Shown here piece by piece: positions 27,765 through 35,550 of a stretch of 64,000 nt of DNA (its first letter is position 1; every line of letters begins with the position of its first letter). The DNA comes from a virus. The stretch covers positions 1 to 64,000 of the IMG/VR virus record IMGVR_UViG_3300046809_000224; one strand, given 5' to 3'. The notes beneath the pieces are model-generated. The model was not told where the DNA came from and made no database searches. It saw only the letters and a program-made list of their open reading frames with translations. A program made the position numbers and the translations under genes.

Positions 27765-28261
27765 GTCACTCTCCCAGCGCCGTAGCGCTAAGTTGTACTA
27801 ACGTGCGATCGCAGAACGCGGCACGCGGGTTGTTTGATTAGCCGCCTAGCGGGCGGCATTCCGTATCGCTATGGCCTGGTGGCCCTTGGTGGTATGCAGT
27901 GTTCGGGTGTGGCGACTGGACCGTCGGTGCACCGCACCGATATTCTTTCCGCGCCTTAAGCCGGCCTTAGTTCACCCAGCCGACATCCAATCGCCACGCC
28001 TGAAAACTGCCTCCGCACGGCTCCGGTCTGTTTCCCGTCACCGTGCGGTTTTGATCTGTCGCAGCGTTCCTCAGACTTCTGTCCGGTAGCCATACATCGG
28101 CCTAGCGCGGTTGGTCTGTGCTGCGTAACGGCCGATTCGATCAGGCCGGCAGAGCGAGTCCCGAAGGAGGCTCTGCGTATTCGGTTTTTAAAGATCGCAA
28201 CTCGCTGTCACCGAGTTGTGCGCCGTTGCGCGGTGTTGCGGTAGTGCTTGGTATGGAGAGA
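27765..28261 (-). promoter_or_regulatory. Long structured leader of the leftward operon
   Basis: About 490 bases without a supportable gene between the leftward promoter and the first gene. Visible stems: GCCGCC / GGCGGC (27841-27857), CCGCACGG / CCGTGCGG (28013-28048), ATCGGCC / GGCCGAT (28096-28136), GCAGAGC / GCTCTGC (28149-28176). A 16-base sequence at 27791-27806 recurs at 34090-34105. It may be an attenuator, an antitermination site (nut/put-like) or an independent RNA. Confidence 0.45.
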
Positions 28262-28686: not shown

Positions 28687-29445
28687 CTAGTTGCCGCCGG
28701 CCAGGCCTGAGCCTGAGCGGTAGATCACCTCGCCGGCAATCTGCAGGCTCTCCAGCTGGTCTGCATGAATCACCTTGTCCGGGAACTCCGGATTGTATGA
28801 GTGCAGCCTGAGCGCCCCTTCCGGCTCTTTGAATATCTGCTTGACCAAGGGCTCGTCCTCAAAGACAACTGCGTAGATCAGACCGTCTTTCACCCGGGTC
28901 TTGCTCGAGCAGATCATCATCATGTCGCGGTTGAACAGGTATGGCTCCATGCTGCGGCCGTGTACCTGGGCGAGCTTGCAATCTTGCGGTCGTACTCCCA
29001 AGGCGCGGAAAAAACCAAGGTCAAACGGAAGCGCCTTCTTCTGCCTTACTTCCCACTGAATCACGCCAGTCCCCGCCGAAAAACGATAGTCAAACCGGTC
29101 AATCCAGACCCGATCCTCATCGATCTCAAGATCCTCCGGCGCCTCCCAGGTGACTACATTACCTTGGTCGTCGGGAAGCAAACGCTTAATCAAGGCATCT
29201 GGTTGACTTGTTTTTGCCACATCGTTTTGCTCTGAACTGTGCTGTACGTCTAGCCACCCTTCAGGCCGCGCAAAGGCTGACTCGATCCGCCTGGCCAGCT
29301 TATCGCCAATGTTGCGAGTGGGCGCAGGCCCCATAACCTGGTTGACCTGCTGCGTGCTGCTGTCGATCCTGCGGGCGAACTCCGCCGGCCCGTCCGTCAT
29401 CAACGAACGTGCGTTCTCCAGCCTGATTTCCTTGACTGTTTTCAT
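28687..29445 (-). CDS. cI: CI-type repressor with S24 peptidase domain
   Basis: About 252 residues; starts at 29472 or 29481 would lengthen it. The N-terminal 65 residues are an XRE helix-turn-helix (EFARRIDSSTQQVNQVMG). The C-terminal S24/LexA-like domain has VHGRSMEPYLFNRD with the Ser nucleophile and DEPLVKQIFK with the Lys. It maintains lysogeny and should self-cleave under RecA activation. It is divergent from the Cro-like gene across paired operators. Confidence 0.9.
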   Translation of the reverse strand: MKTVKEIRLENARSLMTDGPAEFARRIDSSTQQVNQVMGPAPTRNIGDKLARRIESAFARPEGWLDVQHSSEQNDVAKTSQPDALIKRLLPDDQGNVVTWEAPEDLEIDEDRVWIDRFDYRFSAGTGVIQWEVRQKKALPFDLGFFRALGVRPQDCKLAQVHGRSMEPYLFNRDMMMICSSKTRVKDGLIYAVVFEDEPLVKQIFKEPEGALRLHSYNPEFPDKVIHADQLESLQIAGEVIYRSGSGLAGGN

Positions 29446-29473
29446 GGGCCGAATGATGGGCGCATCAATCATT

Positions 29474-29545
29474 TTGATCAACGTGCAAAAAGATTTGCTT
29501 TAGCACATCAAACCACTTGATGTGTATATCGTTTTGATCTATATT
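29474..29545. promoter_or_regulatory. Operator region and rightward promoter (PR-like)
   Basis: Rightward TTGATG, 17 bases, TATATT (29517-29545). Its -35 is one arm of a perfect inverted repeat CACATCAA-ACCAC-TTGATGTG (29504-29524). Further half-sites: TTGATCAA (29474-29481), TTTTGATCTA (29532-29541) and TTTGATTTA (29556-29564). This is the expected OR arrangement: repressor bound at the main site would occlude PR. Confidence 0.8.
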
Positions 29546-31090: not shown

Positions 31091-31783
31091 GTGGCCGGGG
31101 ATTGGATAAAGATGAGAATCGCTTTGGCGGATGATCCCGCCGTCATATCTATAGCTGCGCGCTTGTCTGTCGACGAGTTCACTGTTGTCGGTATGTTGCA
31201 CCACTTGTGGGGGTGGGCCGATACGCAGTCACGCGATGGTCACGCTCCCGGCGTGACAAATGTCTGGATAGATCGGTACGTTCGTCACGTTGGTTTCGCC
31301 GAAGCGATGGTTTCTGTTGGGTGGCTGAAGATCGACTCGGCCGGCGTGACGTTCCCGAACTTTGACAGACACAACGGCGAAAGCGCCAAGGCACGCGGGT
31401 TAGCAGCCGAAAGAAAGAGAAATCAGAGAAGCAAAGTCACGGAAGAAGATGGACAAATGTCACGGTCAGAGCGTGACATAAACGTGACCAGAGAAGAGAA
31501 GAGAAGAGAAGAAAAGAAAGAGAGTGCTCCGAACGCTTCGCGTCCGAAATCTCGCAAAACGGCGATACCTGATGACTTTGGAATCAGCGACCGTGTTGCG
31601 GCGTGGGCGGCGGAAGACGGATACGAATTCCTTGACGAGCACTTGGCGTCCTTCAGACGGAAAGTCGCGGCGAATGGATACAAGTATGTCGACTGGGATT
31701 CAGCCTTCATGGAAGCGATCAGAAGCGACTGGGCGAAGATCAACAACAGGCCGAAAGGCAATACGTCGGGGTTGGTACTGTGA
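31091..31783 (+). CDS. Replication initiator (lambda O-like position)
   Basis: 230 residues from a GTG abutting the previous stop. The N-terminal 100 residues form a winged-helix-like domain (DEFTVVGMLHHLWGWAD; WIDRYVRHVGFAEAMVSVGWL; FPNFDRHNG). The middle is a charged Glu/Arg linker (EEKRREEKKE), and the C-terminal domain has GYKYVDWDSAFMEAIRSDWAK, the DnaT/DnaD-type helicase-loading end. An iteron-like array lies within the gene, as in lambda O. Confidence 0.75.
   Translation: MAGDWIKMRIALADDPAVISIAARLSVDEFTVVGMLHHLWGWADTQSRDGHAPGVTNVWIDRYVRHVGFAEAMVSVGWLKIDSAGVTFPNFDRHNGESAKARGLAAERKRNQRSKVTEEDGQMSRSERDINVTREEKRREEKKESAPNASRPKSRKTAIPDDFGISDRVAAWAAEDGYEFLDEHLASFRRKVAANGYKYVDWDSAFMEAIRSDWAKINNRPKGNTSGLVL
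31228..31525. other. Putative replication origin within the initiator gene
   Basis: Nine copies of GTCACG or its complement CGTGAC occur in 261 bp: 31228, 31239, 31251, 31284, 31344, 31436, 31459, 31471 and 31483. Two pair as GTCACGC-TCCCG-GCGTGAC (31239-31257). A purine-only AGAGAAG tract (31489-31525) follows. Iterons plus an easily melted tract inside the initiator gene mirror lambda ori. Confidence 0.65.
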
Positions 31784-33513
31784 AAAGCTTCAGTGATTTC
31801 GGAATCGACTTGGGCAACAAGAGCGGCGTTGAGGTCAAGACGACCTGCCCGCAGTGCTCGTCGTCGCGCAAGAAAAAGAACTATCCGTGTCTGAACGTCA
31901 ACACGGAACAGGGCGTATGGAATTGCTGGCATTGCGGCTGGAGCGGCACGCTCAAGGGCGGCGAATGGCAGAAGCCGGAAGTCCGTAAGGTCTACACGAA
32001 GCCTGCATTCGTCACGCCGGCGCAAGTGCCGGATGGCACCGTCGCGTGGTTCAAGACTAGAGGCATCGATGCGGCGGCGCTCGAGCGCAACAAAGTCACG
32101 AAAGGCAATACCTACTTCCCGCAGATCGAAGAAGAGCGGGACTGCATCATGTTCCCGTACTTCCGCGGCGAGGAAGTGGTGAACATCAAGTACCGCTCGA
32201 AAGACAAAATGTTCCGCATGGCGTCCGGCGCCGAGCGAATCTTGTACGGCATCAACGACATCGATCCTGAAGGCCTTATTTGGGTTGAGGGCGAAATCGA
32301 CAAGCTGTCAGTCGAGATGGCGGGCCTGACGAGCTGCGTGTCTGTTCCAGATGGCGCGCCCGCTGCCGACTCGAAGTCGTACAGCAACAAATTCGACTTT
32401 CTCACCGAGAAGGCCCTGGAAGACGTGAAGGTGCACATCATCGCCGTCGACAACGACGAGCCGGGCGTACGCCTGCAGGAAGAGTTAGTGCGCCGGCTCG
32501 GTCGCGAGAAGTGTCTGATCGTAGTCTGGCCGGAAAACTGCAAGGACGCCAACGAGGTCTTGCTGACGCACGGCCCCGACGTCCTGCTGGATTGCATCAA
32601 GAATGCTCGAGCCCTTCCCATTGAAGGGACGTACAGCGTCAACGACATCATCGAGTCGATTTTCAACGACTACGAATACGGCCCCGAGCGCGGTGTGTCG
32701 ACGAGTTGGTCGGAAATGGATGATACGTACCGCGTCATGACGGGGGAATGGACGCTCGTAACGGGCATTCCTGGGCACGGCAAGTCTGAGTGGCTAGATG
32801 CCCTTGCCCTGAACCTCGCGAACCACTACGGGTGGAATTTCGACATCTTCTCTCCGGAGAATCAGCCGCTCAAGTATCACGTCGAGAAGATGGCGGAAAA
32901 ATTTGTCGGCAAGCCGTTCATGGAAGGGTTTACGGATCGTATGTCCTTCAAGGAAATGAGCGAAGCGCTGAAGTTCATCAACGATCACTTTCATTTCATG
33001 CTGCCCGACTACCCCACTGTCGACGGTTTGCTTGAAATCTCGCAGCAACTGGTTTTTCGCCACGGTATCCAGGGGTTGATTATCGATCCGTGGAATGAAA
33101 TTAACCCGGCCCGCGACGGCAACGTTACTGAAACGGACTACATCAGCCAGGCGCTGACGAAGATCCGGACGTTCGCCCGCCGCAATCAGGTTCACGTATG
33201 GCTAGTCGCTCACCCGACGAAGCTGCAGAAGGATAAGACGACCGGCGCATATCCGGTTCCGACGCCGTATGACGTCAGCGGCTCGGCTCACTGGAGAAAC
33301 AAGGCGGACAACTGCATCACGGTTTATCGCGACGTTGTACAGGCGGGATCGCCAGTCCAGGTTCATGTCCAGAAGGTCCGGAAAAAGACGAACGGCAAGG
33401 TTGGAATGGTCGAGTTCGATTACGACCATATCTGCGGCAGATACAAGCCGTACAAAAAGAGCGTCTTGCCGAACACGTATTCGATGACCAACCGTAGGAA
33501 GGAGGCAGCGTGA
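31780..33513 (+). CDS. Primase-helicase (T7 gp4/Twinkle-type)
   Basis: 577 residues from a GTG overlapping the initiator stop. There is an N-terminal zinc domain (Cys23, Cys26, Cys49, Cys52), a TOPRIM region with IWVEGEIDKLSVEMAG and VDNDEPG, and a RecA-like helicase domain with Walker A GIPGHGKS at about 328-335, HFHFMLPDYPTVDGL and LIIDPWNEI (Walker B). It would unwind and prime at the phage fork, loaded by the upstream protein. Confidence 0.9.
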   Translation: MKSFSDFGIDLGNKSGVEVKTTCPQCSSSRKKKNYPCLNVNTEQGVWNCWHCGWSGTLKGGEWQKPEVRKVYTKPAFVTPAQVPDGTVAWFKTRGIDAAALERNKVTKGNTYFPQIEEERDCIMFPYFRGEEVVNIKYRSKDKMFRMASGAERILYGINDIDPEGLIWVEGEIDKLSVEMAGLTSCVSVPDGAPAADSKSYSNKFDFLTEKALEDVKVHIIAVDNDEPGVRLQEELVRRLGREKCLIVVWPENCKDANEVLLTHGPDVLLDCIKNARALPIEGTYSVNDIIESIFNDYEYGPERGVSTSWSEMDDTYRVMTGEWTLVTGIPGHGKSEWLDALALNLANHYGWNFDIFSPENQPLKYHVEKMAEKFVGKPFMEGFTDRMSFKEMSEALKFINDHFHFMLPDYPTVDGLLEISQQLVFRHGIQGLIIDPWNEINPARDGNVTETDYISQALTKIRTFARRNQVHVWLVAHPTKLQKDKTTGAYPVPTPYDVSGSAHWRNKADNCITVYRDVVQAGSPVQVHVQKVRKKTNGKVGMVEFDYDHICGRYKPYKKSVLPNTYSMTNRRKEAA

Positions 33514-34630: not shown

Positions 34631-35101
34631 ATGGCATCGGAGAAGCAAATGGCCCGGTGGCTGAGACATTCGACAGTCCGCGAGAACGGCTGCATCGAAT
34701 ACAACGGCAACGTTAATCGAGATGGGTACGCTCCAGTCCGACATCAGGGTACTAGGCAGTATCTGCACAGAATTTCGTTTGAGCATTACAAGCACAAGTT
34801 GGACGACGGAATTTGCGCGCTACATAGCTGCGATAACCGTCGTTGCTGGAATGCGGAACATCTGTTTGCTGGGACGCGCACGGTCAATAACGAAGACAAG
34901 GTCAAGAAAGGTCGTCAAGCGAAAGGATCGGAGCACGGATTGAGGGGCGCCGAACACCCGTTGGCGAGGCTTTCTACCCAGGATGTGCGGAATGTTAGGG
35001 CGCTGTATTCGGATGGCGAGAAACAGCGCGTGATAGCAGAAAAGTACGGGATCAGCCAGCCGGCTGTATCCGCGATCGTTAATCATAAAAGGTGGGCGTA
35101 A
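34631..35101 (+). CDS. HNH homing endonuclease
   Basis: 156 residues: [35 protein letters not shown] (HNH core with Cys and His ligands), then [14 protein letters not shown] (NUMOD-like) and a C-terminal helix-turn-helix ([23 protein letters not shown]). A free-standing phage homing endonuclease; third HNH gene in the window. Confidence 0.88.
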
Positions 35102-35103
35102 TC

Positions 35104-35550
35104 ATGGCTTCAGTTAATCGCGTAACTCTCCTCGGCAATCTCGGTGCAGATCCGGAAGTGCGTTATCTGCCCAGTGGCGACGCGGTGGCGAACATTCGCC
35201 TCGCAACGACCGACCGTTACAAGGACAAGACGTCCGGTGAAATGAAGGAAGCCACCGAATGGCACCGGGTGTCGTTCTTCGGACGCCTCGCCGAGATCGT
35301 CTCCGAATACCTGAAGAAGGGATCGACGGTCTACATCGAAGGAAAGATCCGCACACGCAAATACCAGGCGCAGGACGGCACCGACCGTTATTCGACTGAC
35401 ATCGTTGCAGACCAGATGCAGATGCTCGGTGGCCGCGCCGAAGGTGGTGAGCGTCCGCAGCAACGCCGTCAGGAGTCCGCCAAGCCTGCAGAGAACCGTG
35501 CGCCGGCCGGTGGCGGGTTCGAGCAGATGGACGACGACATCCCATTCTAG
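35104..35550 (+). CDS. ssb: Single-stranded DNA-binding protein (replication-operon copy)
   Basis: 148 residues, close to classical bacterial [23 protein letters not shown], then [39 protein letters not shown], and the tip MDDDIPF. It lies among replication genes. A divergent second SSB is in the leftward recombination operon. Confidence 0.93.

What the first reader, a model, noticed from the sequence alone, without database searches (positions are those of the whole stretch)
31228..31525. Iteron-like array and purine tract inside the replication-initiator gene
Nine GTCACG/CGTGAC sites in 261 bp, two of them forming an inverted repeat, followed by an AGAGAAG purine tract. Uniform random composition predicts about 0.1 such sites here. 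The layout copies lambda ori in gene O, yet the motif differs and the initiator is not clearly O-like.
Basis: partly seen in the sequence, partly recalled or inferred. Interest (0 to 1): 0.8.

Follow-up and report, generated by a model that had tools for sequence, protein, structure and literature searches.

The report
Replication origin inside phage initiator gene
The DNA inside this phage gene very probably doubles as the start site for copying the phage genome: it carries a precisely spaced set of binding sites for the very protein the gene encodes, next to an easily opened purine tract, and the same layout with differing site sequences recurs in many related phages.

Summary
Nine GTCACG/CGTGAC sites lie in 31228-31488; the next-densest 261-bp stretch of the window holds two. 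Synonymous recoding gives about 2 (0 of 20,000 permutations reached 9). The sites fall in all three codon phases, so selection acts on DNA, not on the peptide. They are conserved at synonymous positions in relatives.

The gene (31091-31783) encodes a phage replication initiator (PHROG 2509; no Pfam family): a winged-helix N-domain, a basic helix, and a C-domain resembling the DnaT ssDNA-binding domain. A helicase or helicase-loader gene usually follows.

Across 141 divergent relatives the layout recurs. Iterons of the form GCG-n(1-3)-AC lie on an 11-bp ladder, with converging pairs 14 bp apart. The last copy usually abuts a homopurine tract, (AGAGA)n, found in 135 of 141. The iteron centre differs by clade (TG, TT, G, TCT, CA, CC). 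Four residues on one face of the basic helix track the centre, which suggests a recognition code.

Most likely this is the phage's replication origin, bound by its own product, working like lambda O/ori, SPP1 gp38/oriL or pSK41 RepA. It belongs to none of those families by the tests run. Binding and origin activity are inferred, not shown.

The parts
31091..31783 (+). Initiator gene, 230 aa, GTG start; contains the whole array
   Evidence: PHROG 2509 'replication initiation protein' E 4e-61; no Pfam or NCBIfam family; relatives include epsilon15, TL-2011b and phage Rac YdaU
31091..31378 (+). Codes residues 1-96: predicted winged-helix DNA-binding domain
   Evidence: AlphaFold2 model md6aab979aaf5; best structural matches CAP-type, RepA_N and DnaD winged helices at Z 4.3-5.1, a middling level
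31379..31447 (+). Codes basic helix 97-119 (AKxR..R..R); residues 101, 105, 109, 112 track the iteron centre across clades
   Evidence: helix model confidence about 64-73
31550..31753 (+). Codes residues 154-221: C-domain resembling the DnaT ssDNA-binding domain
   Evidence: 6aeq Z 4.6, rmsd 3.5, 67 aligned; relative L008 matches Pfam DnaT E 5e-11
31228..31233 (-). Iteron 1 (array I)
31239..31244 (-). Iteron 2 (array I), 11 bp after iteron 1
31252..31257 (+). Iteron 3 (array I), converging with iteron 2, cores 14 bp apart
   Evidence: position conserved in classes A, B and D
31284..31289 (-). Iteron 4, isolated site in N-domain coding
   Evidence: less conserved
31345..31350 (+). Iteron 5, isolated site in N-domain coding
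   Evidence: less conserved
31436..31441 (-). Iteron 6 (array II), at -54 from the tract
31459..31464 (-). Iteron 7 (array II), at -31 from the tract
   Evidence: position kept in 25 of 27 class-A genes
31472..31477 (+). Iteron 8 (array II), converging with iteron 7, cores 14 bp apart
   Evidence: position kept in 24 of 27 class-A genes
31483..31488 (+). Iteron 9 (array II), 11 bp after iteron 8, one base before the tract
   Evidence: position kept in 20 of 27 class-A genes
31490..31524 (+). Homopurine tract AGAGAAGAGAAGAGAAGAGAAGAAAAGAAAGAGAG; proposed unwinding and loading element
   Evidence: tract found in 135 of 141 relatives; run of 14 or more in 94% against 6.5% when recoded with own codon usage; local A+T peak 0.62 against 0.40-0.45
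31780..33513 (+). Adjacent primase-helicase gene (TOPRIM + DnaB C-domain), likely loaded at the origin
   Evidence: Pfam DnaB_C E 1e-8, Toprim_2 E 8e-8; PHROG 239 DNA primase/helicase E 5e-93

Best explanation
The stretch 31228-31524 is the phage's replication origin, embedded in the coding sequence of its initiator. The gene product binds the GCGTGAC iterons through its winged-helix domain and basic helix. Bound molecules sit on one helical face (11-bp ladder) in converging groups, forming a nucleoprotein complex that strains or opens the adjoining homopurine tract (31490-31524). The exposed strand is taken by the DnaT-like C-domain, and the helicase encoded next door (31780-33513) is loaded there. 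Shown by sequence comparison: the array, its spacing, the tract, their conservation at DNA level and the domain layout. Inferred: binding, melting, helicase loading and origin activity.
For: Excess of sites over a protein-preserving null, in all codon phases. Near relatives: 0 of 54 site bases changed against 43/361 (L002) and 50/361 (L004) elsewhere; third positions of unchanged codons 0/16 against 32/106 (Fisher P 0.0006-0.005). Clade motif at 12-16 sites per kb in the gene against 0.3-0.7 per kb in flanks, in five classes. Same-strand spacing 11 bp (12 in class E) and converging spacing 14 bp (15 in class E), not multiples of 3 in most classes. The site-plus-tract module is read in different frames (VTREEKRREE or LPEKRREE) in different genes. 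The N-domain array lies at gene positions 138-201 in classes A and D but 55-106 in class C, with the same geometry. Homopurine tract beyond codon choice. Initiator annotation, winged-helix and DnaT-like domains, helicase or loader as next gene in most loci tested.
Against: No binding or replication data for any member were found. Structural matches to known initiators are only middling (Z below 5.2). In about a quarter of relatives the top 6-mer is not significant on its own (p over 0.05 in 26%), though many of these still show the module by eye. The window's GC-skew minimum is at 28098, some 3 kb away. The model's first 6 residues are poorly predicted.
Confidence: 0.87

Rival explanations
1. 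The sites are operators: the protein, or another regulator, binds them to autoregulate transcription, and replication starts elsewhere.
For: Array I lies near the 5' end of the gene; many initiators autoregulate. Temperate-phage context with a CI-like repressor at 28687-29481.
Against: The clade motif is at background level outside the gene, promoter side included. Array II sits over 300 bp inside the gene and is locked one base from a purine tract. Switching of the motif together with helix residues fits the gene's own product.
Confidence: 0.07
2. The repeats and purine tract are by-products of peptide selection (a charged REEKR linker and repeated VT/SR/RD residues), without DNA function.
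For: The linker nearly always reads as charged REEKRREE-like peptide.
Against: Sites occur in three codon phases and encode different residues. Synonymous positions inside sites are nearly frozen. Recoding with the genes' own codon usage loses the tract; AGA is only 7% of Arg codons elsewhere in the same genes. The tract lies in different frames in different genes.
Confidence: 0.02
3. The purine tract is a translational signal (internal ribosome-binding site or frameshift site), separate from the iterons.
For: Purine-rich tracts can act as Shine-Dalgarno sequences (general knowledge).
Against: No in-frame ATG/GTG lies 2-13 nt after the tract in any of 135 relatives, and one in any frame in only 6. 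The tract is spaced precisely from the iterons.
Confidence: 0.02
4. A variant of the best explanation: the array is the origin, but the purine tract acts by R-loop formation: purine-rich mRNA re-anneals to the pyrimidine strand and primes or opens the origin, so initiation needs transcription.
For: The purine strand is the coding strand in every relative with a tract; purine RNA on pyrimidine DNA is a stable hybrid and lambda needs transcriptional activation (general knowledge).
Against: No direct evidence. The tight one- or two-base link to the last iteron fits melting driven by the bound protein as well.
Confidence: 0.2

Closest known systems
Bacteriophage lambda O protein and ori-lambda (and Stx-phage O)
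   Same: Origin in the middle of the initiator gene; iterons followed by an easily melted tract needed for unwinding (PMC7466680).
   Different: Lambda and Stx origins carry 4-6 iterons next to an AT-rich tract (PMC7466680). Here short 7-bp elements lie on an 11-bp ladder in two arrays, next to a homopurine tract with G every few bases. No lambda O family match was found for this protein.
SPP1 gp38 (replisome organizer) and oriL
   Same: Direct repeats bound by gp38 lie within gene 38, with an AT-rich unwinding element; loader and DnaB-type helicase are encoded by the phage (PMC6316719).
   Different: No sequence link found here. The model resembles viral proteins annotated 'replisome organizer' only by fold search.
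RepA_N plasmid initiators (pSK41 RepA; PLE RepA)
   Same: pSK41 Rep: winged-helix N-domain binding Rep boxes inside rep, a linker encoded by the origin DNA, and domains structurally like DnaD (PMC5703833).
   Different: No sequence match to solved structures; fold match only Z 4.7-4.9. Here the C-domain resembles DnaT in some members and varies among relatives.
Bacillus subtilis oriC unwinding region (DnaA-trios and DnaD recognition element)
   Same: A strand-specific single-strand element lies beside the initiator's double-strand boxes and is proposed to direct helicase loading (PMC10201434).
   Different: Chromosomal, DnaA-based; the motif differs. The comparison is by role only.
Escherichia phage Rac (strain 442/2) YdaU and Salmonella phage epsilon15 replication initiation protein
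   Same: Members of the same family by sequence; both genes carry arrays of this kind, class D and class C.
   Different: Annotated without an origin in the records read. E. coli K-12 YdaU has another N-domain, annotated DUF1376, and lacks this motif.

Membership tests
PHROG 2509 phage replication initiation proteins | Profile match over the N-domain and linker | tested here: met
   E 4e-61, residues 1-151
Intragenic iteron origin (functional kind, not a homology family) | Repeated, evenly spaced sites inside the initiator's own gene, conserved at DNA level | tested here: met
Intragenic iteron origin (functional kind, not a homology family) | Adjacent unwinding element | tested here: inconclusive
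   Homopurine tract with local A+T peak; melting not testable here
Intragenic iteron origin (functional kind, not a homology family) | The gene product binds the sites and the fragment replicates autonomously | not testable with these tools
   Needs footprinting and plasmid assay
Lambda O family | Sequence match to lambda O | tested here: not met
   No such match among the Pfam and PHROG families listed at E up to 1
RepA_N (PF06970) | RepA_N profile match | tested here: not met
   No Pfam match for the window protein, and no RepA_N match in any of 54 aligned members
RepA_N (PF06970) | RepA_N-like winged-helix fold | tested here: inconclusive
   4pql, 5kbj, 4pt7 at Z 4.8-4.9, a level shared with other winged helices
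DnaT-like C-domain | DnaT ssDNA-binding domain in the C-terminal part | tested here: inconclusive
   Fold match 6aeq Z 4.6; no Pfam match for the window, but DnaT PF17948 E 5e-11 in relative L008
DUF1376 / E. coli K-12 YdaU | DUF1376 profile match | tested here: not met
   No match at E up to 1

The most novel reading that the evidence does not exclude
This is a widespread, so far undescribed class of phage origin in which iteron and initiator switch specificity together. The iteron is GCG-n(1-3)-AC; its variable centre is read by residues 101, 105, 109 and 112 of the basic helix (for example V109/T105 with TT, D/E105 with G, W112/K105 with TCT). The near-invariant homopurine tract is a single-strand loading element that works with any C-domain and helicase. 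Replication specificity groups could then be predicted from sequence.
Probability: 0.35. Interest if true: 0.78.

Novelty: new variant of a known kind. Interest (0 to 1): 0.63.

Why it matters
Origins are known experimentally for few phages. This layout pins down a probable origin to the base in a large, Pfam-less initiator family found in phages and prophages of Pseudomonas, Burkholderiales, enterobacteria, Planctomycetes and Verrucomicrobia. It offers natural experiments in how an initiator and its many binding sites change together inside one reading frame, and a testable recognition code. The near-invariant purine tract, independent of host and helicase partner, bears on the open question of how origins open and load helicase on a chosen strand.

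Tried and rejected
Nucleotide search of phages for the locus found only one short stretch in the helicase gene. Profile search of solved structures: nothing. Foldseek against PDB gave no match with E under 0.28. I hoped E. coli K-12 oriJ in Rac would be a tested member: PMC3945230 calls oriJ an active origin, but K-12 YdaU has a different N-domain and no such motif, so it is not evidence for this family. Text search for the tract or the REEKRREEK peptide found no phage paper; the library holds open-access papers only, so absence there is weak. Internal ribosome site rejected. The N-domain tree, with site columns removed, is poorly resolved, so the number of independent motif switches (28 changes at best fit, 6 the minimum) is uncertain. 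The residue-centre correlation has only about four supported independent pairs, sign test p 0.125. Families absent from the fold search are not read as evidence of absence.

Full report
Observation. No other 261-bp stretch of the window holds more than two. Permuting synonymous codons within the gene gives a mean of 2.1 and a maximum of 7 in 20,000 trials; drawing codons from the phage's own usage gives a maximum of 8. The sites lie in all three codon phases and encode VT, SR, HA, HV and RD, so a repeated peptide cannot explain them. The purine tract is 31490-31524, one base after the last site.

The gene. 31091-31783 encodes 230 residues that match PHROG 2509, 'replication initiation protein' (E 4e-61), and no Pfam or NCBIfam family. 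Relatives include the initiators of Salmonella phage epsilon15, Escherichia phage TL-2011b and phage Rac of strain 442/2. The predicted structure (mean pLDDT 83.6) has a winged-helix N-domain (residues 16-87), a basic helix (97-119) and a C-domain. Fold comparison gives middling matches only: CAP-type winged helices Z 5.1, RepA_N initiators 4.7-4.9, DnaD N-domain 4.3, and the DnaT ssDNA-binding domain on residues 154-221 at Z 4.6. Viral predicted structures that match at E under 1e-3 include a replisome organizer, a primosomal protein fragment and DUF1376 proteins. The next gene is a TOPRIM/DnaB-type primase-helicase. Among 48 relatives tested, 30 have a DnaB C-domain gene next, 7 an IstB/DnaC-like loader and 4 a lambda-P gene.

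Conservation in near relatives. In L002 and L004 (94% and 91% identical over the first 150 residues) none of the 54 site bases changed, against 43 and 50 of 361 others. Third positions in unchanged codons show 0 of 16 changes inside sites against 32 of 106 and 31 of 103 outside (Fisher P 0.0006 to 0.005). At 61-67% identity, third positions inside sites differ at 0-1 of 12-13 against about half or more elsewhere.

The family. Four further scans of viral contigs and one of bacterial genomes gave 462 loci and 295 distinct genes; 141 representatives differ by more than 15% in the N-domain. Most carry their own over-represented motif, which differs by clade: GCGTGAC (the window's class A), TTGTGAC (B), GCGGAC (C), GCGTTAC (D), CGTCTAC (E), and rarer GCGCAAC, GCGCCAC and GCGTCAC. 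Written as GCG-n-AC, the centre is TG, G, TT, TCT, CA, CC or TC. Motif density is 12-16 per kb in the gene up to the tract and 0.3-0.7 per kb in the flanks.

Geometry. Same-strand sites are 11 bp apart or at multiples close to it; converging pairs are 14 bp apart, core to core. In class E both spacings are one longer, 12 and 15. In classes A, B and C plus-strand copies end 1 and 12 bases before the tract and the first minus-strand copy begins 31 bases before it; class D is the same or one base further. A second array with the same geometry lies inside the N-domain coding, at gene nucleotides 138-201 in classes A and D but 55-106 in class C. The same DNA module thus sits at different codons and in different frames. 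The site-plus-tract junction reads ...VTREEKRREE in one frame and ...LPEKRREE in another.

The tract. A purine tract follows the array in 135 of 141 representatives, median 24 bases, usually (AGAGA)n. Recoding each gene with its own codon usage leaves a run of 14 or more in 6.5% of trials against 94% observed. It is the local A+T peak (0.62 and 0.53 in successive 25-base bins, against 0.40-0.45). It is kept although C-domain families are shuffled across motif classes and helicase partners differ. Some members have (AGA)n or GGAAGA variants, so homopurine character is more constant than the five-base period.

A possible recognition code. Among residues not overlapped by sites, the four best predictors of the iteron centre are 112, 105, 101 and 109, on one face of the basic helix. 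V109 occurs in 35 of 38 TT genes and none of 94 others; T105 in 32 of 38 and none of 94; D or E105 in 41 of 41 G genes; W112 in 7 of 7 TCT genes and none of 125 others, including the long-branch L460; S112 in 7 of 7 TTGTGAC-type genes, one of them verrucomicrobial. The classes of the rarer types were assigned by eye. This is a lead: shared ancestry explains part of it, and only about four independent contrasts are supported (p 0.125).

Mechanism and standing. The parts match a known kind of device: an initiator whose gene contains its own binding sites beside an unwinding element, as in lambda and Stx-phage O (PMC7466680), SPP1 gp38/oriL (PMC6316719) and pSK41 RepA (PMC5703833). The window works like these but is not a member of their families by the tests run. 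New here are the family, the iteron architecture, its clade switching and the homopurine tract. The single-strand elements beside DnaA boxes in Bacillus subtilis (PMC10201434) are the closest idea for what the tract may do. Binding, melting and origin activity are inferred.

Noticed in passing
L041, L043, L046, L064 (initiator genes from 3001, 3001, 3001 and 1952): Four relatives carry an HNH endonuclease domain (Pfam HNH_5 E 1e-7 to 1e-11) inserted between the N-domain and the purine tract, so a nuclease-like domain sits inside the origin gene.
   Followed up: partly
L464:1228-2016 and L465:3620-4477: YdaU of phage Rac in strain 442/2 and of E. coli K-12 share the C-domain but have different N-domains. 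The K-12 gene has its own repeats (TGTTCAAACA and its complement), which suggests the same trick with another initiator domain and perhaps the location of oriJ.
   Followed up: partly
141 representatives, after the tract: C-domain families are shuffled across motif classes (the largest cluster holds five of the classes), pointing to recombination at or near the purine tract.
   Followed up: partly
window 28098: The cumulative GC-skew minimum of the window lies at 28098, about 3 kb before the proposed origin, near the repressor gene.
   Followed up: no
window 34631-35101: A small HNH endonuclease-like gene (HNH_3 E 4e-5) lies between the helicase and the SSB gene (35092-35550) in the replication module.
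   Followed up: no
L042, linker near gene nt 386: One relative has AGAGCAGAG-type repeats in place of the usual iterons and tract (AGAGCA six times), an odd variant.
   Followed up: no
plasmid records CP088505.1, NC_015459.1, NZ_CP091089.1: Three plasmid records encode relatives of the initiator and may be phage-plasmids.
   Followed up: no
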